Part shown: positions 36,329-61,489 of the stretch, piece by piece
Position numbering within the stretch: the stretch's first letter is position 1
Layout of the letters: every line of letters starts with the position of its first letter
Notes under the pieces: model-generated
Told to the model about the DNA's origin: nothing
Databases searched by the model: none
The model's input: the letters and a program-made list of their open reading frames with translations, nothing else
Program-made: the position numbers and the translations under genes
DNA from: Meghimatium bilineatum
Lineage: Eukaryota > Mollusca > Gastropoda > Stylommatophora > Philomycidae
NCBI GenBank assembly: GCA_034231615.1
Contig: CM067306.1
Location: 47,188,094-47,252,093, forward strand
DNA length: 64,000 nt
Reading direction: 5' to 3'

Positions 36329-36374
36329 TCAGGATAAATACGGCTGCGTGAAAAGTTTGAGAACTTCATTGACG
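36329..36374 (-). CDS. ARMC8: ARMC8-like terminal exon with stop
   Basis: A strong acceptor (CTGCATTTTTCTCTGCAG) is followed by one nucleotide that completes the codon left open by exon f. Fourteen codons, VNEVLKLFTQPYLS, and TGA at 36331-36329 follow. The end QPYLS-stop resembles the remembered vertebrate end QQYLA-stop. No clear AATAAA signal is seen close downstream on the minus strand, so the 3' UTR end is undefined. Confidence 0.66.
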
Positions 36375-39300
36375 CTGCAGAGAAAAATGCAGAAATTGTA
36401 CAACTTTGATATTAATAAAATAATATATGGATTACATAAATTCTTCTTCTTATTTTGTGTTGTTCTCAAATTCCTGCAGATAAGCAGGATGTAGAACAGA
36501 ATGCTTCGATATCATTGGATATAAAAATGGTCTACAGCTTCGATGCAATATCTTCGCTTTTTGGATTGAAACATCCGATTTCAGCATGGCTTCTATGTCA
36601 CTTGTGACCCACTATGGAGAGGAACAGCAAACTACACTCTCAAACTTCCTTAGTTGCCTCGTACTACATGCATGGCAGGTAACAGTAGTGCTATTATTTT
36701 CTCCAATTGTGGGCTTCAGCAACACATGGATGGGATATGTGTATACAAGACCGTAATGGTAGATGAAACTGAGAAGTAACTAAAATATTGAATGTAATAA
36801 AAATGATGTCAAAGTGACTGTCATTAAATCATGCTCCTCTGATAATTATAACCAGACTATATACACGTGCCAGTGTATCTACCAATTTGGTACACTAAGC
36901 AATTTGGGATTAACATCCCTTCCTACATATAGATATCTTGTTGTGTTCTGTCAATTTCTGTTTGTTTTGTTTTATTTATATTCTAATTTTTATATTTCAA
37001 GTTTATCCTCCATATTCTTCCGTTATTTATTCTGTTTAGCTTGGTATGAGATCATGGACAGTTCCTTTCTTTACTCGCCATGAATTATGTTGTTCCTAAT
37101 GGTGGTGGTAGTCTTACTTATCTGATCCCTGGGGTTATGAGCTTTCACTCTGTCTTTCCTGTGCAGGTGGTGGTAGGTGCAGGTCTTCTTCAGCCATGTT
37201 GTGTCTGTATAAAGGGTGTTAGTGATGGAGGGGTTAGGTGGTAAGAGTTGTTTACTACAACTCATATGGCGTATGGTCTGTGGTAATTCTTTGTAGGTGT
37301 TTGTTAAGTTGTACATTGTGTTATTTGCAGCCTAAATATGTAGTTTGATCTTTGCAGTGTAGCTTATTTATGCTGTCATATGGATTTGGTTGGGAAATGT
37401 CTGCATATAATACTCTTCTCAGTGGTCCAACCATTGTTCTTTAGTTGTGTTTAGCTGTTCTGAGAATGTGGTGGCAAAAAAAATTGCGTCTAGGAGAATT
37501 ATGAGAGAGCCATATTGAGAGAGAACCATTGATGGGGGCTTTGAAGGCTGATCCATCTGTGTATGCTTGGATCCAGTCCTTGGCATAGTCGATAGTTTCT
37601 AGTGCACTGGACTTTGAGCTGTTTTGGTTTGCTACCTTGGTTACTGACTTGTCAATTAGTGTAGTGTTTATTTGGGGCAGTATGGGATATTTGATACTCT
37701 TTCCATTTCCTCTCTATCTTCAGGATGATGATGTTTCTTGTTTAGTTCTGCTAGCTGCACTGGAAATTTTTGTTTTAGTCTTGTTTTGAGTGTTCATTTG
37801 TGTGTTCCTAATAAGACTTTTCTGTTATAGTGCCAATTTTTGTGCTATCATGTGTGTTCAATCCTGCAAAATACATTTTTACTTAATCACTATTACTACT
37901 TTGGTATTTATATTACTACTGATTGTTATTCTCTGGCGTTGTGGTAATTATATATACACAAATAAGTCTGAAGTTTCACTAGTGGCACACCAGATCAACC
38001 ACCATGCATCAGCAAAGTCCTAGTAGATGACGTACAGTGAGAATTTTCTCTGTGGTCACCTCACAGCAAATAAAATATAAAGATATGTTTTTCTTACCAC
38101 TTCTGAATAGGAACTTTTTTCTTAAAGCATTGCACAACTATGAGAGTTGGTTTTCTGGGTATGAAAGAAAGATCTGGAGAAACATTCCCATTGCACACAA
38201 GAGTTGTATTGTGCATAATGCCTGGGCATTGAAGCAAATGCACAAAAACAAAAAAAAATTAAAAAAAATTGACATACCTTCTCTGGAGATCTTTCTTATA
38301 ACTGACTTCCTCCAGAACATGCTGGACACCCATGTTCTTTAGAATGATCAACCGCTGGGAAGCAGCTGCACGAAGGACACAAGAAGAGTCTAAATCAGGG
38401 TTTATGACCATGTTATTCCCTTGTGCTTTTGACTTTTATAATAAGCCATAAATAAATGCTGAAATATTGGTCATATAATTTAACTATAATCATTTGATTT
38501 TTGATCAGGAACAAGTGTCCCAGCACTGGGGGCATTCCCATATATGTGTTGTGCCTATATATACTCTGCTTGCCATTACATCAGCCATCTAAAAGTGTAT
38601 AAGCTCAGTGTTCCAGTCAGTTGCTGATTACGTGTTCTTCTGATCAGACAAGGAGCACTTTCTCACATTGCTTCAAGTCCATCCCATTTCTACCATTCTC
38701 TGAATATGTACATTGTCTCGTTTGACCTCCTCCTCGTCTTCTCATAGGGTATCCATGACTGCTCTAATCAATTCAATCCTGTCTCTTCTTATCTTGGTGC
38801 TGTTCACCAAGGCTTTACCAGCCAACACATCAGCTCTTTCATTTCCCCTCACCCCAGCATGACTTGGACAATAGATCCATGTAATCCTCTGTGCATTGTT
38901 GAGAAGAGTAACCCAATTAGTTCTGATCATACACTTAATTCTATCTTGTGCAGCACACTTTGAGAGTTTGAAAGAATCACTGAGTCTGTTGGTAGTTGCA
39001 TCACCAGCCAAGTGAGAGTTGCTATCACTGCTTCTATTTCCATCATCACACTTGATGTTGTAATGGGGTACACAGCTGACTTCTCAGTTAATTTCTTGCC
39101 ATTTTGGTAGGCCACGAAATCCCAACCACACCTGTTTGTTTCTTGTGTTACTGAGCCATCTGTGTGAATTGTTGTATCGTGTGGATTCGAGTGCTGCAGT
39201 ATGAGTTTTAGGATAATTCGCTCTGTTCTGTTGGCAGCTCAGTCATGGCACTCTCTTTCCATCTGTATCAAAACTGTTGTCAATAACTTTCTCTCTTTGC

Positions 39301-42300: not shown

Positions 42301-45300
42301 CCTCATTTCTTCTGTATGAACCAAGTTGAGCAATGGCGACAGTCAAATTAGACTCAGGGTTGATACACCTTCTAGATGTGGGACTACTTTGCCAAACATG
42401 TTGAGAGTCTGGAATTTGACCTGTGAATTTCTCACGCACTAGCCTCATCAACCTGTGATGGCCTTCCAATCCATCGCCAGGTGTAGTCTGTGTTTTGATT
42501 CTCAGCAACTGCATTTATGAAATAGGTAGATTGTGCCAACTCGGATGAGGAGCTTCGTGGTCAGAGAACAAATCTCATGTTAAGAAAGACATCATTTCCC
42601 TCTGTGCCTTTGGGTACTGAACCCAATTCTCTATGTATGAGCTGTGTTGGGCAACAGTGATAGTCGAGTTAGACCAGGTTTGAAATGTCCTCAAAGTGTA
42701 AGCCCACAGCACTCAGAGTCCGAGTCTCAACACTGCTATGGTAGAAGTTTGAACAATATGCTCCACACATTTGTTCAATGCTTTTTCCGTGTACAATGGG
42801 GAGCTGTATTGAAAGCTTTTTTCGATACCCAGGAGTACATGTTCAAGTTGGCGTATCCAATACCTGAATCATGACTCCTACTTTGAATGTAGTCAATTGT
42901 GGTAGGACATATGGCTTCTGTATGTTATCGAGCATCTCGTGCTTCTCATGACTGCCCCTCTAATGTTTCTGCATTTTTGCTGCACGAGACCAAATGCATT
43001 GTGTCACTGTATGCAGACAGTGCTGCTGGATGTATTGGTGGAGGGGTTTTGGAGATATTGTTTGTCTCTTTGCTGGCAGTTCTGATTTCATCTACAGCAT
43101 CCACATCTACGGACACAATCCCTAAAAGTGTTGAATATAACAAGAGTAGCTGAGTTTCTGTTTCCAGGAGTTTCTGTACCACAAGAAAGTATTTATAGAA
43201 TCTTGGTTAACAGCCAACCCTGCTTCCACATGTAAGCAATGTAGGGACCTTTGCACCCCAGGGATTCATGTCTATATTTACTTGTAGGGACTTTATCCTT
43301 ACTTGCAAATACTCCTGTCTATTCTTAATTGCAGGGTTTCATGTCAATCCTTACTTGTGAGGATTTTATCCTTACTTGTAGGGACTCTTGTCTATCCACA
43401 CTTAAAAGGGGTTGTTGTTAAATGTAGTTAAATGTAGGGTCCCTGAATTCCTGACAGTTGTTGACCAATAATGACCAAGCCATTATTATGTGAATGTGAA
43501 CAGTGACATTTTTCTATTTATCATGTGTTATGTTGTTCCTGATAGAAGCCCTTTGGTCAAAACATCAATTTGTGTGTGTTACCAGTGATTAGCAAAACTT
43601 CATTACCATATTCCAAGTTTCACCTGTGGTATCATTTTTTAAACTCATACCCTGTTCAATGTTTCGCATGTGGTATTAATTTTGAGACATACCCTGTACT
43701 TAGCTGGAAGGTGTTATCATCAATAATTTGATATATTTCTATATCTTACCATCTTCTGAGATGTCAATAATATTTGTGATGAACTGCAGAACTGGTAGCT
43801 GTAGGCTCGTTACTGGTTGGTGATCGCAATAAGTTTCTTTTTCCTGATAGAAAGAAGTTATCAAAATATATCATTATTTCTGCCAAAGGCAGATGTGTCG
43901 GGTCATAGGCACAAATAAAACGGCAACACAACACATTTAATTCTCTGGACTACATCCTCTTGGAAATCGAATTCTTTTGTCAGATGTTGCAGTGATAGCA
44001 AATCTAACCTTTCACGTCACCTAAAAGGACAAAACTGCTGACCTGCATCTCTTCATCATTCATGGAAATTATTTGATAGAAGATAAAAGTAAGAAATTGA
44101 AACAAGATGTGACAATGATGTTTTCACAGGTGACAGGTTGTCAGTATATCCCCTAACTTTCATTAGTTGCCTCCTACAACATGCCTGGAAAGAACACAGT
44201 GGCCTTATTCTTTACATCCTGAACTAGAAGTCCAGGTCCCAGTTCCCACACAGGCATATTTTTTAAATGATAGGTGATGATAATAATAAAACCTGCAACA
44301 GTTGTAGGAGTGCCACATTGGAAACGTTATAAAAAAAGCCTGTAAAATATTCCTATCTTCGGTCATATAGACAAGTGTGGTGAAATCATGCCAGTTTATA
44401 CTTGGATGGATGATATTTCTTTTTCAGCATTCTATCTCAAACTCCAACTGGATCTCTCTTGTATCCAGACAATGCTTATACTAGATTTCCAGCAAGATGT
44501 AGTCCAGAGAATGGATATGCTGTGTTGACGTTTGATTTGAATGAGCCAATACACCCATCAACACATAGTGGTGGATGATATTTATATTTGGATGATGCTA
44601 TTTATACTTTATGGATGATGTTTATACTTGGGTGGATGATATTTACAAGTGTAAAGCTAATACACAAATAACAATACTATCTTTTTCCCTTTCCATTTCC
44701 TAATGCTATGCTAATGTATTCGTTCTGATCAATTACAAGCAATTGCTCTTGTTTCTCTGTGCAATGTTTCCAGAGCTTTCTTTCATACTCTGATGACTCC
44801 AAACTCTCATGATATGTAATACTTTGAGAATAAGCCACCTATCCCATTGATAAGGAGGTGTTCATTCCACCCTCTTTGCCCATAGGAAATCAGAACATGA
44901 CTTTTAATACTAGGTATTTAGCTAAAAGGTGGGTAAACAAAAAGGTCTTTATCAAGATCAGGACAGTGCTCTGTGTTTGACTATATCTTGATAAAAACCT
45001 TTTTCGTCAAAACATTGATTTATTCCATACTGTATTTGCTTTACTTAAAACTGCTATTTAACCTTTTTATATTTAAGAAAGATCGATTGGACGTCAGGGT
45101 TGATCAATGGCGTAACAAGCTGTTATCGTAAAAACCAATGTTATAGAAACAGACTCAACATTGAATCAAATTTTTCTGGCCATCTCAGGCCTCAAGTCAA
45201 CAATTCCAAAACTAAGATCATTAATTTTACAAACTTTAAGTTTAAAATCACTCTCAATGAAGAAACAATTCAGACAGTTGATAACTTTTCTTATTTAGGC

Positions 45301-48300: not shown

Positions 48301-51300
48301 TTCTTAGAGTGTCTGACAGCCTTCAAAGTAATAATAAAACTAAATAGAGAATGCAGGGAATGGTGTCCGACCTTGGTGGAGTCTGAGGTGATAGCTCTGA
48401 TCTGTGAGAAATTCAGGGAAGGTGATATGATTATATATATACAGATGGGTCGGTTAAGAGACACACCAGGAGTGCCTAGGTATTCACGGCTCAAAGGTGG
48501 GGGAAGACCATCAGAGAGGAATGTGGTAAGTTCGCTCAGATGACAAAGCAGCATGACAATGAAGATTTTGGCAGTAACCAAAGCTTTGAAATGGGTATGC
48601 TTGCAGACTGCGACACATGCCTGTATACTCAGTGACTCGATGAACATGATTGTGAAAGTGCAGGCAGGGCACATTCAGGAACAGTCGCTGTATGTAGTGA
48701 ATGATTTCTGTGTGTGTAAAGTGACTTTTATTTGTATGCAGGGACATGCAAAAGTCCAGGGTAATGAGAGAGCAGATTGTTTGGCAACATATGAGGCTAC
48801 TACAGCTGTTGGCGGAGTGATGGGTTGGGCAGGCATTTTGAATGCCCTATGGAAAAACGCACCAACAAATGACGGTATAAGTGACATAACTAGAATAAAG
48901 AAGCTTGGTTTGAAATGTGGTGTTGCTAGAAAGGAGCAGTTTACTGGGATGTACAACAGTGTACTGGGACCATCAGTCAACATGTAGTGGCGGATACACT
49001 CAAGGAGAGATCTGAGCATCTAACTAACTAATCATTACCATGATTAAATTTGGCAGGCGTAATAATAATAACTGAAGGAATCTGGGATCAAGCATGAGAG
49101 AAGCTGAGAAGGATGAGAGAAGTGTCAAATTAAGCACATTAAAATTACGTGCACAATAACAATAAGTATACATACTATTCATTATCTGCTAAACAAGACT
49201 AAGCACCTATGTATCTGCCAGGAGTACAATGACTTCAGTTCTTAAATACTTAAAATAATAAACCTATAACCCATTAGAGTTGCTGAGGTGCCACATTGGA
49301 AACCTCAGTAAAAACAGCCAGCTAAAAATCCCTATCTTTGATCATATGTTTGAATGTTGAAAAACCATACTTCTAGTAAAATGGCCCTGGATAACAGCAG
49401 AGTTATCCCTTATTTGCCTTACAATGAGGTTTTAAGAGGTGGGTGCCAAGAGTTGAAACATTGCCCACTGAAATGTTACACTGACAGACATACATTTTGT
49501 TAAAAGTTAATGAGCATGTATGGATTTGTTTTAAGTGAACTGATGTTGCTTCTGCTCATTGTCTATTGTCTTTTCCCAGGTGGTTTGTTATCCACTCTTG
49601 CCGTTAAGTGTAGTGGTGATTGGAGCTTGAGCTTGTGTTCCAAGGCCAGATGTGTGGCCTTGGCTGTGCTATAACTGTGTTTGTTCAGGATGTCCCTGAT
49701 GTTGTCTATCCATCTTTTTCATGGTCTTCCTCTTGCTTTGTACACTGATCTCGTTTGGTTATATGCCTGTACGGGCAACTTTTCGTGATGCATTCTCATA
49801 ATGTAGCCAAACCACTTGATCTGCTTGCTGCTTTTCTATGTATTCTGTGCAAGGTGTTAAAACTATTCTTCCCTTGAAGTTTTCAATTCTGCTCATTAAC
49901 TGAACTTTATCATCATGTTAAGGTGTTAAATCTATTCTTCCCTTGAAGTTAAATCAAGGTGTTAAATCAAGGTGTTAAATCAAGGTGTTAAATCAAGGTG
50001 TTAAATCAAGGTGTTAAATCTATTCTTCCCTTGAAGTTTTCAATTCTGCTCATTAACTGAACTTTATCATCATTAACGTCAGTGACGTCATCACGACAAT
50101 ATAACGATAGTGACGTCATCACGACAATATGGCGTTGTGTTTTCATTCTGTGAAGCAGGGATATGTATTATATTCATTGAATTAGTGTGCAGTGGAAAAT
50201 ATGTCAGTTCGGGATAATATCTTGAAGGTTACTTGTTAATGGATTAAAAGATAACAACATAGTGAAGGTATTATCAAGTTTAGAAGTAATAATGTGGATG
50301 CGTACTAAGTAAGGTTGTGACCTAGTGAAATGGTAGCGATGCGCTCAGCGCGAAGTTCAAATGTGATGTAGCGTCAACATCAGAAAAGTGCAATGGAGAT
50401 GGAGAGAGAAAACACATCCATATAACCACATTAGAAGGACAGCTGGAGAGGAGATGGGCACCACTAGCTAAACCTTTTGCCCACTGAAATACTACAATGG
50501 ATAATCACATCACTAATAATACCAATTCCCAAGAAAAGAAATTTGAAAGTGTGTACAAATTACAGAACAATTAGCCTTATAACACACCCCAGTAAAGTGA
50601 TGCTCAAAATACTACTTAACAGAATAAAACACAAGTCGGAAGAAATAATTGCAGAAGAACAAGCTGGCTTCAGAGCAAACAGAAGCACCGTTGAAGAAAT
50701 ATTTAACATCCGAACACTAATCGAAAAACATATTCAACACCAACGTGATTTATACCACAACTTCATTGACTTTACAAAGGCCTTTGATCGTGTTTGGCAT
50801 GATGGTCTGTGGCACATACTAAGAAAATTTAATTTTGACACCACAATTATAGACATTATTGAAGCTCTGTACGAAAATGCAAATAGTGCTGTCTTGTCAC
50901 ACAATACAATTGGAGAGTTCTTCAAAACAACTGTGGGAGTTCGACAGGGATGCGTAATGTCCCCAGTACTTTTTAACATATACTTAGAGCACATCATACA
51001 AGAAACATTGCATGACTACAACACGTCTATATCGATCGGAGGTCGCCCTATTTGCAACTTGCGTTTCGCTGATGATATTGATCTTATAGCTGGGTCAGAA
51101 CAATCATTGCAAGAATTAACATCAAAGTTAGAAAAAGTTACCAGCAAGTACGGAATGGAAATCAATTCAGATAAGAGCAAAATTTTGGTAAACAGCAGAG
51201 ACACAGAAAACCAGACTAATATCATGATGAATGGACACAAGCTTGAAGAGGTGAATACCTTCAAATACCTCAGATCCAGTATATGCAGCGATGGTAAATG

Positions 51301-54300
51301 CAAAGCAGAACTAAAAATAAGGCTGGAGATGGCTTTAGCGTCATTGTCAAGGCTAACTGTGATTTGGAAAAGCAACATCAGTGTTGGAGTGAAAATCAAA
51401 CTGTATAGGTCGCTGGTGCTTTCTGTTGTGTTGTATGGTTGTGAGAGTTGGACACTCACTGCGGACATGGAGAGAAGATTACAGGCTTTCGAGTATAAAT
51501 GCTACAGAAGAATTCTACGAATTTCCTATAGGGAATATAAGACCAATGTGTACGTAAGAAATAAAGTAGAGATGTGTGCAGGTGTCCAGGAGCCATTGCT
51601 TTCAATAGTGAAACGACGAAAACTAGCATGGTTCGGACATGTATGCAGGCACGATTCCTTGTCAAAAACAATACTGCAGGGAACTGTCGAGGGTGGAAGA
51701 AGCACAGGAGGACAAATAAAGACATGGACAGACAACATCAAGGAATGGACAGGGCTAGATATTTCCACACTCATCCGCATCGCTGACGATAGAATTCACT
51801 GGAGGACTCTGTGTGCTGAAGCATCCAATGTGGTACCCCTACGACCCTGAAGGGTTATGGGTTTATTGATTGATCATCATTAAGTGCCATCTCAACAAAG
51901 AAGGTTGGTTGCAATGGACCTCCAATGTCTTGTGCATTGGTGGTGCACTCTGCTAGATTGTTCATCTCATGATGTTACTCTCCAACTTATATCTCTGCTT
52001 ACCTCTTGCTTGCCTTCCCTGAACTCTATCCTCAAGTAAGGTCTTCAACAAGGTGTCATATCTTTTAGTATGTCCAAAATACTTTATTTATTTGATCTTT
52101 ATTTCATTTAATAACTTGTTTTTTCATACGAAATGTTGTGAGAACTTCTTTGTTCATTTTCTTCTCTTCCCACTAAGTTCTCCCTATTCTTCTATATATC
52201 CAAATCTCAAAGGCATCACTTCTGTCTCAGAGTTGTTTGCTTTTTGTCCATATTTCTGAACCTTACATTAATATAGAATAGATGTAACATTTTATAATTC
52301 TCATTTTTGGCTTGTTAGTAATTTGTTTAGATGTCAATACTTTCATCATGCTATTGAAAATACTTTTAGTCATTTCTATTCTCATTTTAACTTCTGTTTC
52401 ACACTACAATCATTTGTGATTATGTGTTCGAGATATTGGTAATTTGTTGTAGTTTCTCTTCATATATCTTTATGTTTAGCATATGTTCTTCTGCGATTTT
52501 ACTGATTATCATGGTTTGTTGATTTTTGGATGTTTATATATTTAGTCCATAAGTGAACTTCATCATCATCAGGTGCCATGCCGGCTGACATAGTCGGTCA
52601 TGGCTCTCCACAGCTATCTGTCCACAGTATTATGTATATAAGTCGTTGTTGTTTCCTTGCCGTGCCAGGTTGTCAAACTGTCTAATATTTTCTCACGTTG
52701 TCGCCCTCTGCCTCTGTTGTCTTCAATTTTGCCTGTTGTGACTATATTCTCTAAACCTGCCTGTCTCATGAAGTGGCCAAAAAAAGAAGATTGCCTTTTT
52801 CTTATATTGTTGATTAAAGTTCATTTCGCATTTAACACCTCTACATTAGTTTTTCTGGCAGTCCATGGTATTCTCAGCATCTTCTGTAGAACCACATCTC
52901 TGTTGCCTCTAATTTCCCACTTTCGAGTTTGTTTATTGTCCAAGACTCGCACCCATATGTTAGTATAGGGGTTATATAGCACTGCAAAACTCTCTTTTTC
53001 ATCTCTAATGACAAGGTCATATTACACAGTATATTTCAAGTGAACTTAGACAAGACAAATAATTTACCAAGTACTTGATGATGGATTGTAGCTCCTCTGT
53101 TTTGCCAATGATATGTTCTTTACATGAAGGTCCGTCAGCCATATTGCTCAAAACACAGAGAGCCTGTGAAAAAGGTAATAAATATAATTCAGTGGAGAGA
53201 TAAACACATTTGTAGAATAGAGGGACATGTAAGGAAGATAAGAAACATAAAATTTAGAAGGATAAATCCTCAGTGTTAGGGAAAATAAGAAATATAACAT
53301 TTAGAAGTAGATATCCTCAGTGTATCGTATCAATATCGCTGACAGTGTACAGAATGGACTAGATCAATTGTCGATATGGTGCAGAACATACAACATTGTG
53401 ATCAATCCCTCGAAAGCAAAGGTCGTCTGGTACTCCTTAAATAATAATCTGGCCAATGACACACTGCCAGCTGTTAGTTGCATGGGCTCATTCATTGAAA
53501 GAGAAAAGGATCTTAAATATCTTGGGATAATCTTTGATAGAAGTCAACATTTTTCAACAAGTGATAATTCAACAAGCATGTCACAAATATGATTCAGAAG
53601 GCTAAAAGAGGGATCAGTGTTATCAAGGTTATGGCGACCTTCAACATGCAGCGATGGGTACTTTTTCTGCTTCTGAAAGTGATGGTGTCGATGGTAATCA
53701 AAAGTAATATGTCATAGATTATGACCTCAGCCTACTAACTCTGTCACAGACACAAGTCGATAGATTGGAAAAAGTCCAAAATTAGACAATGAGAGCGGTA
53801 ATGGGGTGTACTAGAGATACACCCATCTCTGCTATAAGATTTCTGCTCGACCTCCCCAGCATTAGAGTGCGACATCAGGTAGCACAAGTTAGGTTGTACC
53901 TTAAAGTGACAGAATACAACCACCACCCATTACACCATCGTCTAGATGAGTCAAAGGGAAAACGAATCAAGCATGGCAGATCATGGATGGCAGAGGCTGA
54001 AGACACACTGTGAAGAGTATGTGAATTGGAAGAAATAGGAAAATGCGGTGCATGGGTGGAGGTAGACACTGAGAAGAAATCACTCACTAAAGTAATAATA
54101 CAACTAGATAAAGCGTGTCGAAAATGGACGGAAGTCAGGGCTCAGGATACAGTGTACGAACTCGCCCGACTACACTCGAAACCACAAGACATAATTATAT
54201 ACACAGATGGCTCCGTTAACAGAAACACAAATAAAAGCAGTTGGAGTTTAGTTGCCTACAGAAACGGCGTGAAGTTGGTTGAGAAATCTTCAGCATATTC

Positions 54301-57300
54301 CATTGTTACATCGAGCATGAGGATGGAGATAGAGGGAGTTACAGCAGCTCTTAATTGGTTGATAACATACATAAACACACTCGGTAATACTCACAGACTC
54401 TCAAAGCATGTTGCGACTTATTGAACAACTCAATTGTCCAGAGCATTACATGGATATACTGCCCTGGTCATGCTTGGTTCAGAGGAAACAAGAGAGCCGA
54501 CTTATTGGCAGGCAATGCGGCGATAGACGGCACATTGCTGAGAAGAGATAAAGCAGACTTAATGAAAGCAGTAATAAATTCATTTCAAGATGCAGATGAT
54601 GTCAATGAGGCTTGGAACGTACACATACAGAGAATATTAGAAATGGGAGTATCTAGAGGTGAGGGAAGGAAAAGTAAATTTTTTATAAAGTCCCAAAGAT
54701 CACACAATCAACACCTGACTGGGACTCTGAATCTACATACACTCGGATGGCTGCTGGAGCGGAGAACTTATGGAAATGTTCAGTGTGCTGTGAAGCCAGT
54801 TTCTAATCAAGAATCAGGTACCTTGACCTCAGCATCCACGCATATGTGACTGTGTTTACTGCACTCTCTGTTGAGTGTAATGACGGTCTTGACTGCCTCT
54901 TGAAAGATCGTAGGAATAGGTATCCATTCCTCGCCAGGAGATATGTCTTCTGGGGCGCAGATATGTTTAACGGTATCCTCGGCCCGAACCATCCATGATT
55001 TGCGTCTCTTGAGCCTGCTTCCCTTCACATGAGGGAGCTTGCTGTGTAGTGGGTGGTCTATATCAAAACTCACTGGCACGTCACATATCAACTCTATGAG
55101 ATATGCTCGGAAAAACAAGGAGAAATCTCATATAATCTCATAAGGTGTGTCCCTTGTGCATCGAAGAATTATCCACATTGCTTCGTTTTGAATTATCTCC
55201 AGCCTCTCAATCTGTGTGTGACAGGCGGTGATAGTGGCACCTGCACATTCAATGACAGGGAGGACAAGAGCTTCATATAAGATTACGAGCTGTGGTTGTT
55301 TAGTGTCAGCCGCTGCCGTCACTCTCAGAGATGAAAGTCCTTTACGGGCCTTTGCGATAACATGATCAAAGTGTTCCCGGAAACACAGACTACGATCAAA
55401 TCGCATGCCCAGTTATTATAAGGATGAGGTCCTGATTACATCGTACCCTCTCATCTCCACAGTCGGTGTCACAGACATTACAATGTGATTGTTAAGAGAG
55501 AACCATGTCACCATGGCCTTCTCTTGGTTGATGGTTCAAGGGCACAGAACAGGCATACAAACACCAGAACACATACTCCAAGACTGTAAGACTGTCCAGA
55601 ATACAAAGAACTGCGAGGCAAGACATGGCCACACTGAACTGAGGCAAAAACTTTGGGGCAGTTGCTCTGACCTGGAGAAGACTGGGACCCTCGTCCTGGT
55701 GACTGGCGTGAAGATCTAGCATGACCAAAAGATTCCTGAATGCAGAAGAAGATTGGAGAAATGAGAATTGAATAACGTGTTGGAAGTGAGTGTAATTAGT
55801 ACTACACTACAACAGCACCCTTCCCCCCAAGTGTTGAGTAAGTAACTAAAACAATGTCCTCTGCCAAACCAATAGCATCCTCTGGCAAACTTTAAATGTT
55901 CTCTGCCAAACCAACAGCGTTCTCTGGCCAACTATAAATGTTCTCTGCCAAACCAACAGCGTCCTCTGGCCAACTATAAATGTTCTCTATCAAACAATAA
56001 TGTCCTCTGACAAACGATGACTGTAAAACCAAAAGTGTCCTCTGGCACACTATAAATGTTAAACCAATAATGTCCTTTGGCCAAGAATAAATATCTCTGT
56101 CAAGTCAAACTATTAGTGTTCTCTGTCAAACCAAAAGTCCTCTGCCAAACTATCAATGTCCTCTGTCAAACCAATAGGGTCTTCTGGTCAACTATAAATG
56201 TTCTCTGTTGAACCAATAGTGCCCTCTGGCCAACTACTCTCTGCCAAACTATAAACGTTTTCTGCCAAATTAAAAGTGTCCTTTGGCAAACTATAAATGT
56301 TCTATATCAAACCAATATTGTCCTCTGGCCAAGAATAAATGATTTCTGCCAAACAATAACATCTTCTGTCAAACTTTTAGTGTTCTCTGTCAAACAAATA
56401 ATGTCCTCTGCCAAACTTTTAGTGTTTTCTATCAAATTAATAACATCCTCTACCAAACTATAAATGTTCTAAGTGCAATCTGGCAATATCTTTTATTTTA
56501 GACCAAACTGCAGACAAGACTATTTCTTCTTCTTACCTGTTCTAATACAAAGACAGGCAAGGTTGGATCTCGAATTGTTCGGAACACTGCCTCAATAACT
56601 TCACCACCAAGAAGTTTAACCATTCTGTCAACTACCTGTCAGGAAAAGATTTTTGAATGTAAACATATCAATTAATCAAGTGCCATGCCGAGTTGCTTGG
56701 TGATCATGTTTCTCCCCAACTCTCTGTCTCTTGTGTTGTTAATAAGTTCAATTGGTGACATTCTCCCATGCCACAGTGGCAACCAATCCAGCAATTTCTC
56801 TCTTTGTCTTCCTCTGTAAACATATACATGTATATAAAATATTGATGACATTTCTGTCTTTACAGATGGTCAGGAAGTAGACCAGTGTAAAATTGCCAAG
56901 ACACATAGTTACTACATTTCACACATGATTGCCTGCACTGGCAGGCTTTATGGAGAAGTACCATTGCTAGGAGATGTTCTTGCTGACCTGCAAGAAGATT
57001 TTTTAAAATATAAACAGAGAAAAGAACTTTGTTCTAACTGACAGACTTCTGAGATAAATCAAAACAGTATAACGCATAATGTTCTATCTTGTAGACTTAT
57101 GAGTTATCTCAAAACAGAGCATAACACTTACTGTTCGATCAGATGTACATCTTTCTCCTGTAACTCTCTGTAAAAGAATGTCTCGTTCCTCACAATCGTG
57201 GAGCTGAGGAAGTGAACATAGAAACTGTATCATAATTATGCATTTACTTGCAACACAAACACAATAATAATATAACAAAGATGTTCAGAAGGTGCAGAGC

Positions 57301-60300
57301 AGTTTCCAACAGGTGTAGAGTTTCCAACAGAAGGTGTAGAGTAGAGTCTCAAACAGAAGGTGTCGAGTAGAGTTTCAAACAGAAGATGTAGAGCAGAGTT
57401 TCCAACAGAAGGTACTGAGCAGAGTTTCCAACAGAAGGTACTGAGCAGTTTCCAACAGAAGGTACTGAGCAGAGTTTACAACAGAAGGTACTGAGCAGAG
57501 TTTCCAATAGAAGGTACTGAGCAGAGTTTCCAATAGAAGGTACTGAGCAGAGTTTCCAACAGAAGGTACTAAGCAGAGTTTCCAACAGAAGGTACTGAGC
57601 AGAGTTTCCAACAGAAGTTGTAGAGTAGAGTTTCCAACAGAAGGTGCTGAGCAGAGTTTCCAACAGAAGGTGTAGAGTTTCCAACAGAAGGTGCGGAGCA
57701 GAGTTTCCAACAGAAGGTGTAGAGTAGAGTTTCCAACAGAAGGTACTGAGCAGAGTTTCCAACAGAAGGTACTGAGCAGAGTTTCCAACAGAAGGTGTAG
57801 AGTAGAGTTTCCAACAGAAGGTACTGAGCAGAGTTTCCAATAGAAGGTACTGAGCAGAGTTTCCAACAGAAGGTGCTGAGCAGAGTTTACAACAGAAGGT
57901 GTAGAGTTTCCAACAGAAGGTACAGAGCAGAGTTTCCAACAGAAGGTGTAGAGTAGAGTTTCCAACAGAAGGTGCTGAGCAGAGTTTCCAACAGAAGGTG
58001 TAGAGTAGAGTAGAGTTTCCAACAGAAGGTGCTGAGCAGAGTTTCCAACAGAAGGTGCAGAGTTTCCAACCCTTACTGATCTAGCTCCCCATTTTCAAAT
58101 CAACAACTTTTTAACCCCCCACCTTTCTCCACAAAAAAGCATACCCTTTATCACACATACCATATTGCTTCTTCTTCTGTGTTCATTCTCAAACTCCTGT
58201 AGATTAGCAGATCCAGAGAACAGAATGCGTAATGTCAAGGATTATAGCATTTCAACCTGATACATCTGGATTCAGCATGGCTTCTTGCACATGTACACTG
58301 ACTATATTAGTTTAGGTATGTGGATTCATTTTCGGACTAGACATATCCAGAAGTGCTCAGATCTCACTTCAGTAAATCTCTCAGGGTGTAGTGGCTAATG
58401 GTTCCTGGTCTATGTTGGTTCAGTGTCCGTTTTGAAATATTCATGAGGTGTTCTCTCTATGCTATGTTGATCCTTACTCTCAAAACATGCATTCTTGATA
58501 GTGACTCATGCTCCTTTACTTCTATGGGATGTGCAGCAAACCTCACCCTAAAACCTCATTAGTCATCTCTAAAGGCATATATCTCAGGTAGCAGTGTCAC
58601 TATTCTTTGCTCTACTTTAACCTTTAGCACGCGATTGTCTTAAATGGCAGACAACAAATTAGCATATCTCAGACACCATTGTCTGGTAAATCAGACAAAC
58701 AACAATTTGTCGTAAAGCCTGATTGGTTAAGTATTTAGATTTTGACCAATCCTAGTTAGCTACTCCATCTGACTTCCTTTCCCGAACTGTTTATGAACAG
58801 GAAGGACGCATATGGCATTTTAGTAATGAAATATATTACATCTCTCCACATTGGCAAATCCGAACAGAGACATGAAAGTGAACTGGCGTTTATATACTCT
58901 TATTTTATCGCATTTTCAGTAAAATCATTATTGATTGTGATGTGAATTCCAAAATTCTTGAGAGGTAAGTTGGTTTTTATATTAGAATATAGTGTTTGAC
59001 ACGTTGCTTTCGTGAGGGAGTGGATAAAATTTGACTTTTTTGGATCGATCACAAATATGAGTAGTTCTAGTGTTTTAGAGAACAATTTACAGCAAATATA
59101 TAATGTTCATTCATTCTCACCAGTGATATTATGATGATTTTACAATGAAACCACATAAATTCTGTAGAATTTAGCTTTCTTTACAGGGTTCCCACTTCAG
59201 AAATTTAAAAATCAAAGATAAGTAATTTTTAAATATGTTTTTCTTGTTTTGTACTTCATTAGGTTTTTGTGAATAAAACGTCGTTACTACTTTCTTATAC
59301 GTCTGGTATCACACACACGTACAAAAATTACACTAATATATGCAGTATTCAATTCTTTATTTATATGTGCAAATATTATTTAACCTTCTCCACACCTATA
59401 TTAACACTGGCCGCCAAAAACAAATATGGCGGCTAGCGCCGTTGGCGACACACCCCATCAGACGAGATATCGTGAGATTTACACGTACCACAGTTCGTGC
59501 ACATAGCTGGGGACATGCGCAATCGAAGCCGGTATATCCCCCACTTCCGAGATGATCATTGTTGAGAATGGCTAGCTATTCGTACACGTTTAAGAGCAAT
59601 TAATCTTACCACATCTGCACACCAGTACAATGCCATGATAATGGATTGGTTTTATAGACCTTTATTTCATCGTATTTTGAATAAAATAACATTGAATTGT
59701 GGCTTGAATCATGAATTATTAGGTTATTTAGTTTCACAGCAGTGAATATACAGAATGCTGTGTTGGTTTGGGGACTTGTACGTTTGATATCGAATATTTT
59801 GAAGTGGCAGAAAAAATAACTCTAGGCCTAAGCTCAAAGAACGATTTTACTGCAAATCTACACGTTTTATACAGTTCCCCCGGCTATATTTTGATAATTT
59901 TGCAGTGAAAGAACATAAATACAACAGATTTGCATGATTTAGTTTACAGTGTTGCCAAGGAATTCGATAAGTAAGGTAAGTAATTATTTTACTAATTTTT
60001 TCCCTCTTTGTTTGTTATAAAATATATGTTTTTTTTGTGAAAAACGTCTTTACCACTTTCTCATACATCTGGTATCACACACACACGTACATAAATTACA
60101 CCAATATATGCAGAATTCAATTCTTTATTTAAATGTGCAAATATTATTTAAATATCTCTAACAACTAAAAAATTATCACATTTTCAAAACAGTCACCATC
60201 AATAATGCAAATTTTCAAAAATAACCTGGTGGCAGGGAGATGTTTCGTATTTTTTAATCAAGCTTGCTAAAGGTTAAATATCTCTAACAACAAAAAAGTT

Positions 60301-61259
60301 ATCGCGTTTTCAGAAAAGGGTACCAACAATAACGGCAATTCTCAAAAGAGAATCCAGCTGCAGGGGGAAAATTTTGGTTTTATGTTTACAGTGTGCTAAA
60401 GGTTAATTAAAGTCACATGATGTAGAACTATCAATAAGATCCTAATCAAAGTTATGGTTCACGCTGAAACAAATGTGCCAGGCGGGTTTGTGCAAAATAA
60501 CGCAACTTCACTGTGAAACCAGCAGCCCAATGTACTTAACGCTCTCCAGAAAAAAGACCCACGGTCTTTGATGGTTTATCTGCGAAGAGTCTTTCTTGGT
60601 CTTCCTCTTTTTCTTTTGTCATCTGGTACCCATTTTAATGCTTGTATTGACAGTCTGTTTTCACTCATTCTAAGTACATGTCCAATATAAGTCCATCGTT
60701 TTCTTCTTATTGTTGTAGAAACATATTGCAGTTTGGTGTCAACTCTTACTAGCATGTTTGATTGAATTACTCCCTAGAGACTGGATATTAATACAGGAAT
60801 TACATACTATAGGAAGGACCTGGGCTTAACAACCATTATCCCCTAAAGACTGTATATTCATACATGCAGTACATTCTATAGGAAGAGCCCACTAGGAAGG
60901 ACTTGGGCTTATCAACCATTTCTCCCATTACTCCATAAAGACAATTCATTCTATTTGAAAAACAATTCATTTGGAAGAACCTGGGTCTATTAACTTATCC
61001 CCCACGCTGACTTTGAATGAAATCAGCGGTGTGTGGATAAGAGATGAATAAATAAAGAGAAAGAGTGAGAAAATGAAAAGATAAGCAAAGAAATATTAAT
61101 AACCAGATCACATACAGACGTTAATATATTCCGAATGATGCATAAGGCCTTCTGTCTAATTAGCATGATTGGGTCCTCAATTATTTTTAGCAATGTGTTA
61201 GTTCCAAGGCTGTTGATGATCTTCACACGAAGTGGCTCCGAGGCACAGTAGGTCAAGGA
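36329..61259 (-). CDS. ARMC8: ARMC8-like gene, C-terminal 7 exons (5' part outside window)
   Basis: Assembled by eye from seven minus-strand exons. Their lengths (144, 72, 99, 96, 94, 88 and 46 nt) sum to 639 nt, which is 212 codons plus TGA with no internal stop. Every junction keeps phase: 0/0 for the first four introns, then 1 nt + 2 nt, then 2 nt + 1 nt. Family knowledge: ARMC8 is an armadillo-repeat scaffold of the CTLH (yeast GID) E3 ubiquitin ligase, homologous to Gid5/Vid28, acting in nucleus and cytosol. Segments such as KALCIIRNILT, ALCVLSNMADG, LQLPVLQFITNIIDISED, LKNMGVQHVLEE and the end QPYLS-stop line up in order with the remembered vertebrate C-terminus. Exon 2 adds about 24 residues relative to my memory of the vertebrate protein. 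The first two thirds of the protein must lie beyond 64000. Orthology rests on memory, not a search. The exon chain itself is well supported. Confidence 0.72.
36437..36718 (-). mobile_element. SINE-B in the last ARMC8-like intron
   Basis: Minus orientation, all modules: 'ttcttcttattttgtgttgt' tail side, 'gcagataagcaggatgtaga', 'gaaacatccgatttcagcat', 'tactacatgcatggcaggta'. It ends 63 bp upstream of the terminal exon acceptor. Confidence 0.75.
36830..37810 (-). pseudogene. L-H LINE, RNase H region (second subfamily)
   Basis: Minus strand: AKDWIQAYTDGSAFKAPING (RNase H Y-T-D-G-S) at about 37600-37510, and a H-N-P-R-D-Q region at 37150. Related to 62390-64000 (VYTDGSATRAVKNGGAG). Broken frames. 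Confidence 0.6.
38278..38365 (-). CDS. ARMC8: ARMC8-like exon f
   Basis: The acceptor CTTGTGTCCTTCGTGCAG and donor GTATGT bound 88 nt (2 nt, 28 codons, 2 nt). The sequence ASQRLIILKNMGVQHVLEEV then SYKKDLQRR corresponds to the remembered ARMC8 block with a DMG core near the C-terminus. A second CAG 11 nt inside could serve as an acceptor, but it would break the phase with exon e. Confidence 0.68.
38490..40050 (-). pseudogene. L-H LINE: RT end, RNase H, C-terminus
   Basis: Minus strand in order: IVWFSLNNNLVTQYQHPPAW (post-catalytic), VGITFDRSLSFAKHVDNVIQ, an RFLLDLANIKARHQISQVKE region, RNase H with D-G-S-V-T and MEIEAVIATLTWLVMQ, TWIYCPSHAGVRGNERADVL, and the C-terminal scrap to 38500. Strongly similar to the plus-strand copy 53310-54855. 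Interrupted by frameshifts. Confidence 0.8.
40120..40185 (+). repeat. Tigger-like MITE scrap
   Basis: 'ataacaacttggtcagacag' and 'gctaaatgcaa' match the MITE head at 9839 and 41140. Confidence 0.45.
40190..41115 (-). pseudogene. L-epsilon LINE, RT core to 3' end
   Basis: Minus strand: a Q-G-C-V-L-S-P-Y-L box remnant near 41090, LRYSADTTLMAHNQAGLQPL (catalytic box changed to Y-S-A-D-T), FPVAIYGCESWTITNNMKNK, YRKILRIPWTKKITNVAILR, LQYFGHIKHHDDLEKTIMKG, then the 3' end 'gatatgttacatgatt'. The mutated catalytic box makes it inactive. Confidence 0.78.
41102..41316 (+). mobile_element. Tigger-like MITE with duplicated head
   Basis: Two head units in tandem ('caataaaatcaaattataat' and 'caatcaaatcctattatagc'), shared body 'ttgctatatacagtaacaac', and an inverted end 'ctataaagggattttactg'. 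It is an uninserted relative of 9839-12709. Confidence 0.65.
41380..43425. repeat. Degenerate ~26-bp repeat field
   Basis: Recurrent 'gggactcctgtctatcctca' units at 41390-41440, 41640-41730, 41850-42020 and 43245-43410, separated by unrelated sequence (42020-43240) with Repeat D blocks. Two 'tgaaccaa...gagcaatggcgacagtc'-like stretches at 42310 and 42640 look duplicated. Confidence 0.6.
42890..43190. other. Open on both strands, unassigned
   Basis: Plus ORF 42899-43153 (84 codons) and minus ORF 43182-42946 (78 codons) overlap. The minus side has an acceptor-like CTTGTGGTACAG. It lies in the intron between ARMC8-like exons e and f, but no donor with matching phase is seen, so it is not included. 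Confidence 0.25.
43455..43640 (+). repeat. Penelope-like terminal-repeat remnant
   Basis: 'ttcctgatagaagccctttg' and 'gtcaaaacatcaattt' follow the CTGATGA...GAAA layout. It parallels 16205-16372 including 'aacaaaacttcattacc'. Confidence 0.5.
43750..43843 (-). CDS. ARMC8: ARMC8-like exon e
   Basis: The acceptor CTTCTTTCTATCAG and donor GTAAGA bound 31 codons plus one nucleotide. The sequence runs EKETYCDHQPVTSLQLPVLQ then FITNIIDISED. The remembered vertebrate counterpart has LQL, an ISNLI-type core and an acidic end at the same spacing. The leftover G joins CT of the next exon to give an alanine codon, which supports both splice choices. Confidence 0.7.
43875..44000 (+). mobile_element. SINE-A copy, 3'-truncated
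   Basis: 'ggcagatgtgtcgggtcata', 'ggcacaaataaaacggcaac', 'ctggactacatcctcttgga'. Lacks the ACCATTGTCC block. It begins 32 bp upstream of the ARMC8-like exon e acceptor. Confidence 0.7.
44110..44240 (-). repeat. SINE-B/Repeat D 5' module
   Basis: 'cattagttgcctcctacaac' and 'atgcctggaaagaacacagt' match 21690-21740. Confidence 0.5.
44270..44400 (+). repeat. Unnamed repeat shared with 49255-49380
   Basis: 'gagtgccacattggaaacgt' and 'cctatcttcggtcatat' match the second copy in order. Identity unknown. Confidence 0.55.
44425..44570 (-). mobile_element. SINE-A copy
   Basis: 'tctatctcaaactccaactg', 'ctagatttccagcaagatgt' and 'agtccagagaatggatatgc', minus orientation. Confidence 0.7.
44572..44662. 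repeat. Short tandem repeat (GGATGATATTTATACTT type)
   Basis: About four units of 20-22 bp; a further unit lies at 44400-44415. Confidence 0.7.
44700..45060. repeat. Repeat D copy and Penelope-like remnant
   Basis: 'caattacaagcaattgctct' to 'gaataagccacctatcccat' is Repeat D. An inverted pair 'aggtctttatcaagatc' (44950) and 'atcttgataaaaacct' (44985), followed by TCGTCAAAACATTGA, recalls hammerhead-type ends. Confidence 0.4.
45090..45600 (+). pseudogene. LINE RT thumb fragment
   Basis: Plus frame NSKTKIINFTNFKFKITLNE, ETIQTVDNFSYLGSKMTQDG, then shifted VLTYGCESWKMTKALEKKL. The F-x-Y-L-G-S-K and Y-G-C-E-S-W blocks are clear; catalytic part absent. Confidence 0.7.
45600..45950 (-). pseudogene. 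L-beta LINE 3' end carrying a SINE-A
   Basis: Minus strand KKSSNQNKKRYVRNEEITRS, NIGGPLQPTFFVEMK and the 3' end near 45605. It abuts the preceding plus-strand LINE tail to tail. It is continuous on both sides of the SINE-A at 45761-45918. Confidence 0.65.
45761..45918 (+). mobile_element. SINE-A (158 bp) with 14-bp target duplication
   Basis: Flanked by AGACATCTCAATTC at 45747-45760 and 45919-45932. 5' 'cagcaaccagatggatgtgt', core 'actacatcctgttagatgtc', 'gaccatggtcctgctacaag', tail GCTGAAGAAGA. The host LINE is restored when it is removed. Confidence 0.9.
45955..46205. other. Unassigned, possible LINE scrap
   Basis: The minus frame NIVLIATLQAFQICVRCSAS (about 46120-46060) resembles an R-A-Y-R-T region of an RT-linked domain. 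Isolated and weak. Confidence 0.3.
46215..46430 (-). repeat. SINE-B copy, diverged
   Basis: 'ccttagcaggatttagtcaa', 'tatgacatgcatgtcaggtt' in minus-strand order. Confidence 0.6.
46430..47370 (-). pseudogene. L-delta LINE: RT box to C-terminus
   Basis: Minus strand: L-F-P-Y-L-F-N-I-Y-A-E-N-I-M-R (RT box 5) near 47330, a K-F-E-Y-L-G-A region near 47000, and the tail through 46440. Contains many stops. Confidence 0.65.
47385..49030 (+). pseudogene. L-H LINE: RT and RNase H, decayed
   Basis: Plus strand: SLGLPQGSPLSPVLFNVYTV (RT box), then Y-T-D-D-S-L-V-Y-R near 47680 (catalytic, shifted frame), TMKYFGVMLEQSLSFN, RLDRIENEAMRIILGC, a long frame 48052-48543 with KMKDSRLKRGKLWIGRAEDI and I-I-Y-I-Q-M-G-R where RNase H normally has Y-T-D-G-S, KVQGNERADCLATYE, ending about 'ggatacactcaaggagagat'. 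Nearly full RT-RNase H extent, frames broken. Confidence 0.8.
49031..49254. other. AT-rich, nothing recognised
   Basis: 'gaagctgagaaggatgagag' suggests a LINE tail, not assignable. Confidence 0.4.
49255..49380 (+). repeat. Unnamed repeat, second copy
   Basis: Matches 44270-44400: 'gaggtgccacattggaaacc', 'atccctatctttgatcatat'. Confidence 0.55.
49381..49675. other. Debris with a block shared with 17300, 27360 and 29530
   Basis: 'aggtggtttgttatccactc' and 'caaggccagatgtgtggcct' recur at those places; family unknown. Confidence 0.45.
49680..49860 (-). pseudogene. LINE C-terminal tail
   Basis: Minus strand KQIKWFGYIMRMHHEKLPVQ, then A-R-G-R-P-W-K-R-W-I-D-N-I-R-D, the usual LINE tail. Same class as 19195-19490. 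Confidence 0.65.
49855..50075. repeat. 13-bp tandem repeat inside a duplicated ~60-bp block
   Basis: 'aaggtgttaaatc' repeats five times (about 49951-50020) between two copies of 'tattcttcccttgaagtttt' + 'caattctgctcattaactga'. Confidence 0.85.
50081..50130 (+). promoter_or_regulatory. Two 28-bp monomers with TGACGTCA (CRE-type) sites
   Basis: TGACGTCA at 50083-50090 and 50111-50118, each followed by TCACGACAATAT. The second unit continues into ATGGCG, giving CAATATGGCG (YY1-like). TGACGTCA is the CREB/ATF palindrome. It sits about 360 bp upstream of the intact RT ORF, so it may be the LINE's internal promoter. This is inference. Confidence 0.55.
50477..51850 (+). CDS. Reverse transcriptase ORF of an L-beta LINE (457 aa)
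   Basis: Copies LINE RNA into DNA at the insertion site. Motifs: IPIPKK and NYRTISLI (about 15-35), EEQAGFRANRST (60-71), DFTKAFD (98-104), GVRQGCVMSPVLFNIY (154-169), catalytic FADD (197-200), YLRSSI-type and YGCESWTL thumb region (about 260-330), and an R-R-K-L-A-W-F-G-H tail with a basic Q-I-K-T-W-T-D-N-I end. No stop or frameshift. The apurinic endonuclease normally N-terminal in such proteins is missing; sequence upstream to 50080 looks like 5' UTR, so an internal deletion or truncation is likely. Non-autonomous, but the RT may be functional. The clade (RTE-like) is a guess from sequence style. Confidence 0.88.
   Translation: MPTEILQWIITSLIIPIPKKRNLKVCTNYRTISLITHPSKVMLKILLNRIKHKSEEIIAEEQAGFRANRSTVEEIFNIRTLIEKHIQHQRDLYHNFIDFTKAFDRVWHDGLWHILRKFNFDTTIIDIIEALYENANSAVLSHNTIGEFFKTTVGVRQGCVMSPVLFNIYLEHIIQETLHDYNTSISIGGRPICNLRFADDIDLIAGSEQSLQELTSKLEKVTSKYGMEINSDKSKILVNSRDTENQTNIMMNGHKLEEVNTFKYLRSSICSDGKCKAELKIRLEMALASLSRLTVIWKSNISVGVKIKLYRSLVLSVVLYGCESWTLTADMERRLQAFEYKCYRRILRISYREYKTNVYVRNKVEMCAGVQEPLLSIVKRRKLAWFGHVCRHDSLSKTILQGTVEGGRSTGGQIKTWTDNIKEWTGLDISTLIRIADDRIHWRTLCAEASNVVPLRP
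51870..51960 (-). pseudogene. L-beta LINE 3' end, tail to tail with the RT copy
   Basis: 'aagtgccatctcaacaaaga' and 'tggttgcaatggacctccaa' are the reverse of the family 3' end (compare 45605-45660). The two tails meet at 'ttgattgatcatcatt'. Confidence 0.65.
51960..52560 (-). pseudogene. L-delta LINE fragment
   Basis: Minus strand: LINE tail near 52010 ('ttgcttgccttccctgaact'), Y-G-S-E-x-W near 52250, and a K-T-K-x-M region near 52540 ('atgtttatatatttagtcca'). Confidence 0.6.
52560..53045 (-). pseudogene. L-alpha LINE, 3' part
   Basis: Starts with the reversed 3' end CATCATCATCAGGTGCCATG; then a G-N-R-G-R tail, ENIVTTGKIE, a F-x-H-F-M-R-Q-A block, W-T-A-R-K-T-N-V-E, and C-E-S-W-T-I-N-K near 52940. 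It stops 23 bp before the ARMC8-like exon d donor side. Confidence 0.75.
53068..53163 (-). CDS. ARMC8: ARMC8-like exon d (armadillo repeat)
   Basis: The acceptor CCTTTTTCACAG and donor GTAAAT bound 32 codons in phase 0. ALCVLSNMADGPSCKEHIIG is the best single match to remembered ARMC8 (CILANIADG-type block), followed by KTEELQSIIKYL. It sits between an L-alpha fragment and a tandemly duplicated AT-rich stretch. Confidence 0.75.
53175..53325. repeat. ~65-bp tandem duplication
   Basis: 'aagaaacataaaatttagaa' / 'tcctcagtgttaggg' is repeated as 'aagaaatataacatttagaa' / 'tcctcagtgta'. Confidence 0.7.
53315..54855 (+). pseudogene. L-H LINE: post-RT, RNase H and C-terminus
   Basis: Plus strand: LSIWCRTYNIVINPSKAKVV, KYLGIIFDRSQHF, RAVMGCTRDTPISAIRFLLD, RIKHGRSWMAEAEDTL, RNase H YTDGSVNRNTNKSSWSLVAY with MRMEIEGVTAAL and ITWIYCPGHAWFRGNKRADL, then LGWLLERRTYGNVQCAVKPV. 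RNase H residues D, E and D are visible, but frames shift at about 54015, 54420 and elsewhere. Best-preserved RNase H of the window. Confidence 0.82.
54830..55540 (-). pseudogene. L-H LINE, post-RT segment, opposite strand
   Basis: Minus strand: MRFDRSLCFREHFDHVIAKA, ARKGLSSLRVTAAADTKQPQ, IIQNEAMWIILRCTRDTPYE, then KGSRLKRRKSWMVRAEDTVK. It abuts the preceding plus-strand copy 3' to 3'. Confidence 0.75.
55535..55725 (+). pseudogene. L-H LINE C-terminal block
   Basis: Plus strand TGIQTPEHILQDCKTVQNTK, then LRQKLWGSCSDLEKTGTLVL and a stop; near-identical to 24400-24570. Confidence 0.75.
55850..56470. repeat. Degenerate ~42-45-bp minisatellite
   Basis: About 14 units mixing 'tcctctggccaactataaat' and 'gttctctgccaaaccaatag' half-units. 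It lies 67 bp beyond the donor of ARMC8-like exon c, inside the intron. Confidence 0.8.
56537..56635 (-). CDS. ARMC8: ARMC8-like exon c (armadillo repeat)
   Basis: The acceptor TTTTCCTGACAG and donor GTAAGA bound 33 codons in phase 0. The sequence VDRMVKLLGGEVIEAVFRTI then DPTLPVFVLEQ corresponds to the remembered ARMC8 block in which a repeat ends in EQ just before the next repeat. It lies only 496 bp downstream of exon b on the minus strand. The short intron between them holds a plus-strand exon-like ORF (56866-57041). Confidence 0.72.
56680..56825 (-). pseudogene. L-alpha-related LINE 3' scrap
   Basis: 'gtgccatgccgagttgcttg', 'aataagttcaattggtgaca' and 'ttctctctttgtcttcctct' parallel 32330-32470 on the same strand. 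Confidence 0.6.
56866..57041 (+). CDS. Exon-like ORF antisense inside an ARMC8-like intron
   Basis: The acceptor TTTCTGTCTTTACAG ends at 56865. After two nucleotides, 58 codons (including the stop) run open to TGA at 57039-57041: GQEVDQCKIAKTHSYYISHM, then IACTGRLYGEVPLLGDVLAD, then LQEDFLKYKQRKELCSN. There is no decay and no match to the LINE families here. It would be the last exon of a plus-strand gene, or a captured gene fragment, lying between ARMC8-like exons c and b on the other strand. I do not recognise it. Confidence 0.45.
57132..57203 (-). CDS. ARMC8: ARMC8-like exon b
   Basis: The acceptor TTCACTTCCTCAG and the consensus donor GTAAGT bound 24 codons in phase 0, from LHDCEERDIL to CTSDRT. 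It is short and charged, and it would extend the loop before the next armadillo repeat. It is the exon least like my memory of vertebrate ARMC8, so identity rests on position, phase and splice signals. Confidence 0.62.
57285..58070. repeat. 26-bp minisatellite, about 30 copies
   Basis: Unit 'gagtttccaacagaaggt' + (ACTGAGCA or GTAGAGTA), with insertions and shortened units. It lies inside the intron between ARMC8-like exons a and b, 82 bp upstream of exon b. Since 26 is not a multiple of 3, the unit reads through all three minus frames, giving overlapping long ORFs. Confidence 0.92.
58166..58616 (-). mobile_element. SINE-B with an internal ~190-bp insertion
   Basis: Tail side 'cttcttcttctgtgttcatt', 'gatccagagaacagaatgcg', 'gatacatctggattcagcat', then foreign sequence 58295-58490, then 'gtcatctctaaaggcatata' and 'gtgtcactattctttgctct'. 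The outer piggyBac-like MITE sits in its 5' tip. Confidence 0.65.
58621..60402 (-). mobile_element. Outer piggyBac-like MITE, host of a nested copy
   Basis: TTAA at 58617-58620 and 60403-60406. Inverted ends CCTTTAGCACGCG and, reversed, CCTTTAGCACACTG. Without the insertion it is 888 bp. It belongs to the same family as 6419-7295, but its left part is strongly diverged. Confidence 0.85.
59384..60273 (-). mobile_element. Inner piggyBac-like MITE (890 bp)
   Basis: TTAA at 59380-59383 and 60274-60277. Ends CCTTCTCCACACC and GCTTGCTAAAGG. It is inserted in 'gcaaatattat|TTAA|atatc'; the inner copy contains this same site uninterrupted (about 60147), which proves the TTAA duplication. Inverse relative of 6419-7295. 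Confidence 0.92.
60407..60540. other. Nothing recognised
   Basis: Short unassigned stretch after the outer MITE. Confidence 0.5.
60545..60765 (-). pseudogene. LINE C-terminal tail
   Basis: Minus strand R-R-R-W-T-Y-I-G-H-V-L-R-M-S-E, A-L-K-W-V-P-D-D-K-R-K-R-G-R-P-R-K-T. Typical endonuclease-type LINE tail. Confidence 0.65.
60775..60990. repeat. ~66-bp degenerate tandem repeat, 3 units
   Basis: 'actataggaaggacctgggc' and 'ttaacaaccattatccccta' recur with changes. Confidence 0.7.
61116..61259 (-). CDS. ARMC8: ARMC8-like exon a (armadillo repeat)
   Basis: The acceptor CTTTTTCAG ends at 61260 and the donor GTATGT starts at 61115. The 48 codons are in phase 0 at both ends and start SLTYCASEPLRVKIINSLG. 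The helix-rich pattern and the stretch IIEDPIMLIRQKALCIIRN look like an armadillo repeat. It is the most upstream exon of this gene in the window; I see no further exon between 61260 and 64000. Confidence 0.72.
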
Positions 61260-61261
61260 CT

Positions 61262-61435: not shown

Positions 61436-61489
61436 TACAACAATCCAAATATAACATCTTTTGTAAATAAAATTATTTTTCATAGAACT

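What the first reader, a model, noticed from the sequence alone, without database searches (positions are those of the whole stretch)
36329..61259. Host ARMC8-like gene hidden in repeats: seven phase-matched exons
No long ORF marks this gene. It appears only when short minus-strand frames bounded by CAG and GT are chained. All six junctions are phase-compatible, two of them non-zero (1+2 and 2+1), and the sum is 212 in-frame codons plus a stop. The order of motifs follows remembered ARMC8. Nearly everything else from 36 to 61 kb is then intronic.
Basis: partly seen in the sequence, partly recalled or inferred. Interest (0 to 1): 0.8.

Follow-up and report, generated by a model that had tools for sequence, protein, structure and literature searches.

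The report
ARMC8 gene spread through repeat-rich introns
The finding is the tail end of an ordinary animal-type gene, ARMC8, which makes a scaffold protein of a protein-disposal machine; it is cut into small pieces by long introns full of transposon debris, six of the seven proposed pieces are right, and the front of the gene lies just beyond the window.

Summary
The seven minus-strand exons exist at the stated place, have AG/GT borders and compatible phases, and join to 212 codons plus a stop. Six of the seven, joined, match human ARMC8 residues 482-657 of 659 in one collinear stretch, E = 2.7e-15. The second exon (57132-57203, 24 aa) has no counterpart in human ARMC8: adding it worsens the match to 8.8e-12 and splits it. 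I treat it as probably spurious, at most an optional lineage-specific exon.

The window lies in a 1.61-Gb, 32-contig genome. In 200 kb fetched upstream the missing N-terminal exons lie on the same strand and in order. The 18-exon model spans 72 kb, gives 641 aa without an internal stop and matches human ARMC8 29-657 at E = 5.5e-128. Controls scored 50-58 against 826. No better copy of this region was found in the genome, and GID4, the partner that ARMC8's C-terminal half anchors, is encoded too.

So this is a moderately diverged but otherwise normal ARMC8 gene: new member of a known kind, low surprise.

The parts
61116..61259 (-).
57132..57203 (-).
   Evidence: (milder intron penalty) used its acceptor for a 10-nt piece
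56537..56635 (-).
53068..53163 (-).
43750..43843 (-).
38278..38365 (-).
   Evidence: one search aligned it from its acceptor to 38289 and ended there
36329..36374 (-).
   Evidence: not reached, whose intron penalty was stricter
36329..61259 (-).
50477..51850 (+). Reverse-transcriptase ORF (457 aa, RVT_1 E = 4e-40) inside the ARMC8 intron 43844-53067, antisense to the gene: retrotransposon debris, not part of the gene

Best explanation
The feature is the 3' (C-terminal) third of an ARMC8 gene on the minus strand of a large, repeat-rich animal-type genome. The whole gene model has 18 exons over 72 kb (about 28 N-terminal codons not placed). Shown: the exons, their order, splice borders and full-length similarity to ARMC8. 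Inferred from published work on human and yeast complexes: the protein folds as an armadillo superhelix and is a scaffold subunit of the CTLH/GID ubiquitin ligase, its N-terminal half sitting on RanBP9-GID8 and its C-terminal half, the part in this window, anchoring the substrate receptor GID4. The genome encodes a GID4, which fits. The transposon pieces between the exons are spliced out as intron.
For: Seven exons reproduced; six of them match ARMC8 482-657, E = 2.7e-15, one stretch. N-terminal exons found upstream in order. 641-aa model, no internal stop, 17 of 17 introns GT/AG, E = 5.5e-128 to ARMC8 29-657; 248 of 623 aligned residues identical. Controls 50-58 against 826. Of 17 intervals tested (17 of the 18 model exons less the 12-nt one, plus exon 2 = 17 in all), 16 show no repeat within 264 kb and one (87560-87716) is 20% covered by one match, so the exons are not transposon sequence. 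With the human segment 482-657 as query the best place in the genome is the window's exon 4. GID4: two matches over the Pfam cut-off, E = 4.6e-18 and 4.4e-15, 10 kb apart on C24; a 44-aa stretch of the second matches human GID4 at E = 9.3e-25.
Against: No Pfam model passes its cut-off for the window part; the best is ELMO_ARM, below cut-off. The C-terminal part is more diverged (31% identical over 482-659) than residues 1-399 (42%). Exon 2 does not fit. The first about 28 codons and a 12-nt microexon (87441-87452) are uncertain. The genome search is weak for short diverged exons: with the human segment even the true exon 4 scored only E = 4.77, so a second diverged copy could be missed. No transcript data, no ortholog of a relative, so neither splicing nor selection was measured. 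The CTLH core family (PF10607) search did not complete.
Confidence: 0.97

Rival explanations
1. A decayed or silent duplicate (pseudogene) of ARMC8, with the working copy elsewhere.
For: C-terminal divergence from human (31% over 482-659); long repeat-filled introns.
Against: 18 exons, 641 codons, no internal stop or frameshift, 17 of 17 GT/AG introns. Whole-genome searches with the window's own protein found 5 matches, all 5 inside this locus, and with the human segment 2 matches, the better one in this locus and the other weaker, E = 8.31.
Confidence: 0.02
2. Chance chaining of open frames between AG and GT, no gene.
Against: E = 2.7e-15 and 5.5e-128; spliced-alignment controls 50-58 against 826.
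Confidence: 0.005
3. Exon 2 is a real lineage-specific or alternative exon adding 24 residues between two armadillo helices near human residue 527-530.
For: Strong donor (GTAAGT) and acceptor, phase 0/0, open; not repeated within 264 kb; the direct exon 1-3 junction is two residues shorter than human; one search chose its acceptor for a 10-nt piece.
Against: Continuous match to ARMC8 without it, split and weaker with it; skipped by the stricter spliced alignment; intervals as good arise by chance; codon usage inconclusive.
Confidence: 0.15

Closest known systems
Human ARMC8 alpha (PDB 7nsc chain E, 659 aa), armadillo scaffold of the CTLH ubiquitin ligase
   Same: Full-length collinear match, residues 29-657, E = 5.5e-128; stop almost at the same place.
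   Different: About 40% identical (248 of 623), only 31% in 482-659; a six-residue insertion in exon 5, four more residues near human 131, two fewer at the exon 1-3 junction.
Yeast Gid5/Vid28
   Same: Same place and role in the GID complex according to PMC9180843 (passages seen).
   Different: Not among the 51 solved sequences matched at E <= 1e-5. PMC6680376 (abstract and passages seen) argues Gid5 is not an ARMC8 ortholog, whereas PMC3797097 (abstract and passages) treats it as the homolog.
Importin alpha and designed armadillo proteins
   Same: Armadillo repeats; weaker matches (E 1e-16 to 1e-5).
   Different: Match only part of the protein and far more weakly than ARMC8.

Membership tests
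ARMC8 | Full-length collinear sequence similarity to ARMC8, better than to other armadillo proteins | tested here: met
   7nsc_E 5.5e-128 over 29-657; next that is not ARMC8 1e-16
ARMC8 | N-terminal exons on the same strand upstream of the window | tested here: met
   exons at 65956-108497, same strand, in order; first about 28 residues not placed
ARMC8 | Intact reading frame with canonical introns | tested here: met
ARMC8 | Best match in its genome for ARMC8 (no better copy elsewhere) | tested here: inconclusive
   5 of 5 matches in this locus; best of 2 matches is this locus, but at E = 4.77, so sensitivity is low
ARMC8 | Partner GID4 encoded in the same genome | tested here: met
ARMC8 | Association with RanBP9-GID8 and GID4 in a CTLH complex | not testable with these tools
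   needs protein work; CTLH-family search (PF10607) was busy
ARMC8 | Transcription and splicing at these junctions | not testable with these tools
   no RNA data
Yeast Gid5/Vid28 | Sequence similarity to Gid5 | tested here: not met
   no chain so named among the 51 listed at E <= 1e-5

The most novel reading that the evidence does not exclude
The lineage keeps ARMC8 and GID4 together, but the GID4-anchoring half of ARMC8 has drifted (31% identical to human, a six-residue insertion in exon 5, and possibly a 24-residue optional exon) while the GID4 stretch that I read stays very like human GID4; the receptor-docking interface may be rewired or isoform-controlled here.
Probability: 0.1. Interest if true: 0.35.

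Novelty: new member of a known kind. Interest (0 to 1): 0.12.

Why it matters
It shows that a reader without tools recovered a real gene from short exons spread over 25 kb, with one false exon in seven. Biologically it places ARMC8 and GID4 together in a genome of 1.6 Gb. Published passages report that Drosophila lacks recognisable ARMC8 and GID4 (PMC7384856; for Armc8 also PMC6680376), so the pair's retention is a small data point on when these parts are lost. Otherwise ordinary.

Tried and rejected
Relatives in viral contigs: none for the ARMC8 part or the transposase. Rfam and tRNA scans of the window: nothing at their thresholds. Pfam on the spliced part: only sub-threshold ELMO_ARM and ARM_PUB. 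Search for an upstream exon inside 61260-64000 gave nothing above the noise; the missing exon lies at 65956-66048. One search (intron penalty -30) gave seven zero-length exons and weak N-terminal pieces at 110386-111572, which I reject as artefacts of a penalty too mild; (penalty -45) removed them but also lost exon 7, which I keep because. Structure prediction was not run: the spliced protein is not contiguous in the DNA and ARMC8 has a solved structure. L026, L029, L030 and L032 were fetched and not studied.

Full report
Observation. Exons at 61116-61259, 57132-57203, 56537-56635, 53068-53163, 43750-43843, 38278-38365 and 36329-36374 have AG/GT borders, phases 0,0,0,0,0,1,2 on entry, and give 639 nt = 212 codons plus TGA.

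Identity. Single exons already pointed to ARMC8 in order: exon 1 to residues 482-525 and exon 4 to 563-591, both with weak E-values on their own (the whole-sequence E for ARMC8 was 0.087 and 0.17, and a designed armadillo protein ranked above it). Joined without exon 2, the 188 aa match human ARMC8 (7nsc_E) 482-657 in one stretch at E = 2.7e-15. With exon 2 the same chain is still best but at 8.8e-12 and in two stretches, with exon 2 unaligned except for its last residues. Pfam had no model above cut-off.

Exon 2. Seven phase 0/0 stop-free intervals with splice scores at least as good occur in the window on both strands: exon 2 itself, exon 3 and five others. Codon scoring trained on 18 model exons puts exon 2 in the middle: -0.005, with 17.6% of 3000 random intronic stop-free stretches as high, and real exons ranging from -0.71 to 0.29, so the test separates poorly. 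The stricter spliced alignment skips it; the milder one used its acceptor for a 10-nt piece. I conclude that it is probably not an exon of the main transcript.

The rest of the gene. The window is C9:47188094-47252093 of a genome of 1,612,235,226 bases in 32 contigs. I fetched 200 kb beyond its right end. tblastn with ARMC8 gave in-order minus-strand hits from residue 417-448 at 72461 to 29-53 at 108493. A spliced protein-to-genome alignment that I wrote scored 826 on the real data and 58, 52 and 50 on a reversed protein, the other strand and a shuffled protein. The combined 18-exon model spans 72,169 bases, has 1,927 coding bases, a mean intron of 4.1 kb, 17 of 17 introns GT/AG and 641 aa without an internal stop. 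It matches ARMC8 29-657 at E = 5.5e-128; the second hit is another ARMC8 chain, and the best that is not ARMC8 is at 1e-16. Identity is 248 of 623 aligned residues: 42% over 1-399, 36% over 400-659 and 31% over 482-659. A 12-nt microexon (87441-87452) is optional, since leaving it out keeps the frame; about 28 N-terminal codons are not placed.

Surroundings. About 41% of the gene's span is repeated within the 264 kb held, and of 17 intervals tested (16 model exons of 36 nt or more other than none left out, plus exon 2; the 12-nt one was not tested) 16 show no repeat and 87560-87716 is 20% covered by one match. The introns hold a reverse-transcriptase ORF at 50477-51850 (+) and RNase H pieces at 54026-54424 (+) and 38930-39238 (-), and tandem arrays. 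So 'hidden in repeats' is a fair description.

Copy number and partner. With the window's own protein, 5 of 5 matches in the genome fall in this locus. With the human segment, 2 matches were returned: exon 4 of this locus (E = 4.77) and a weaker place on C11 (E = 8.31); this query is insensitive, so a diverged second copy is not excluded. GID4 (PF09783) has two matches over the cut-off on C24, in order on one strand, E = 4.6e-18 and 4.4e-15, and two sub-threshold ones elsewhere; the same search found it in 0 of 14 control genomes (the controls' names were not printed). A 44-aa stretch of the second, read, matches human GID4 at E = 9.3e-25.

Mechanism. Shown here: gene structure and homology. 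From the literature (passages of PMC9180843): one half of the ARMC8/Gid5 armadillo repeats engages RanBP9-GID8, the other half anchors GID4, and only the longer alpha isoform binds GID4. The window's exons are the C-terminal half's end, so I infer that this part helps hold GID4. Drosophila is reported to lack both ARMC8 and GID4 (passages of PMC7384856; PMC6680376 for Armc8). The genome here keeps both.

Verdict. I did not determine the species.

Noticed in passing
10482-11748 (-): Two adjacent ORFs with DDE_3 (E = 7.2e-15) and a sub-threshold HTH_Tnp_Tc3_2 match: a mariner/Tc-like transposase split in two frames; no relative in viral contigs.
   Followed up: partly
50477-51850 (+): 457-aa reverse-transcriptase ORF (RVT_1, E = 4e-40) inside an ARMC8 intron, antisense to the gene.
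   Followed up: partly
57317-58062: Tandem array of a 26-bp unit, 29 copies, which stays open for over 190 codons in more than one minus-strand frame; looks like a by-product of a unit without stops, not a gene.
   Followed up: no
22381-22982 and 55853-56470: Further tandem arrays: 45-bp unit x 13, and 21/42-bp units.
   Followed up: no
L027, L028 (C24, near 58.20 Mb): GID4 exons: a 44-aa stretch in L028 matches human GID4 at E = 9.3e-25, much better conserved than the ARMC8 tail.
   Followed up: partly
L032 (C11:37732149-37732451): Weak match (E = 8.31) to the human ARMC8 segment inside a 438-aa open frame, perhaps another armadillo protein.
   Followed up: no
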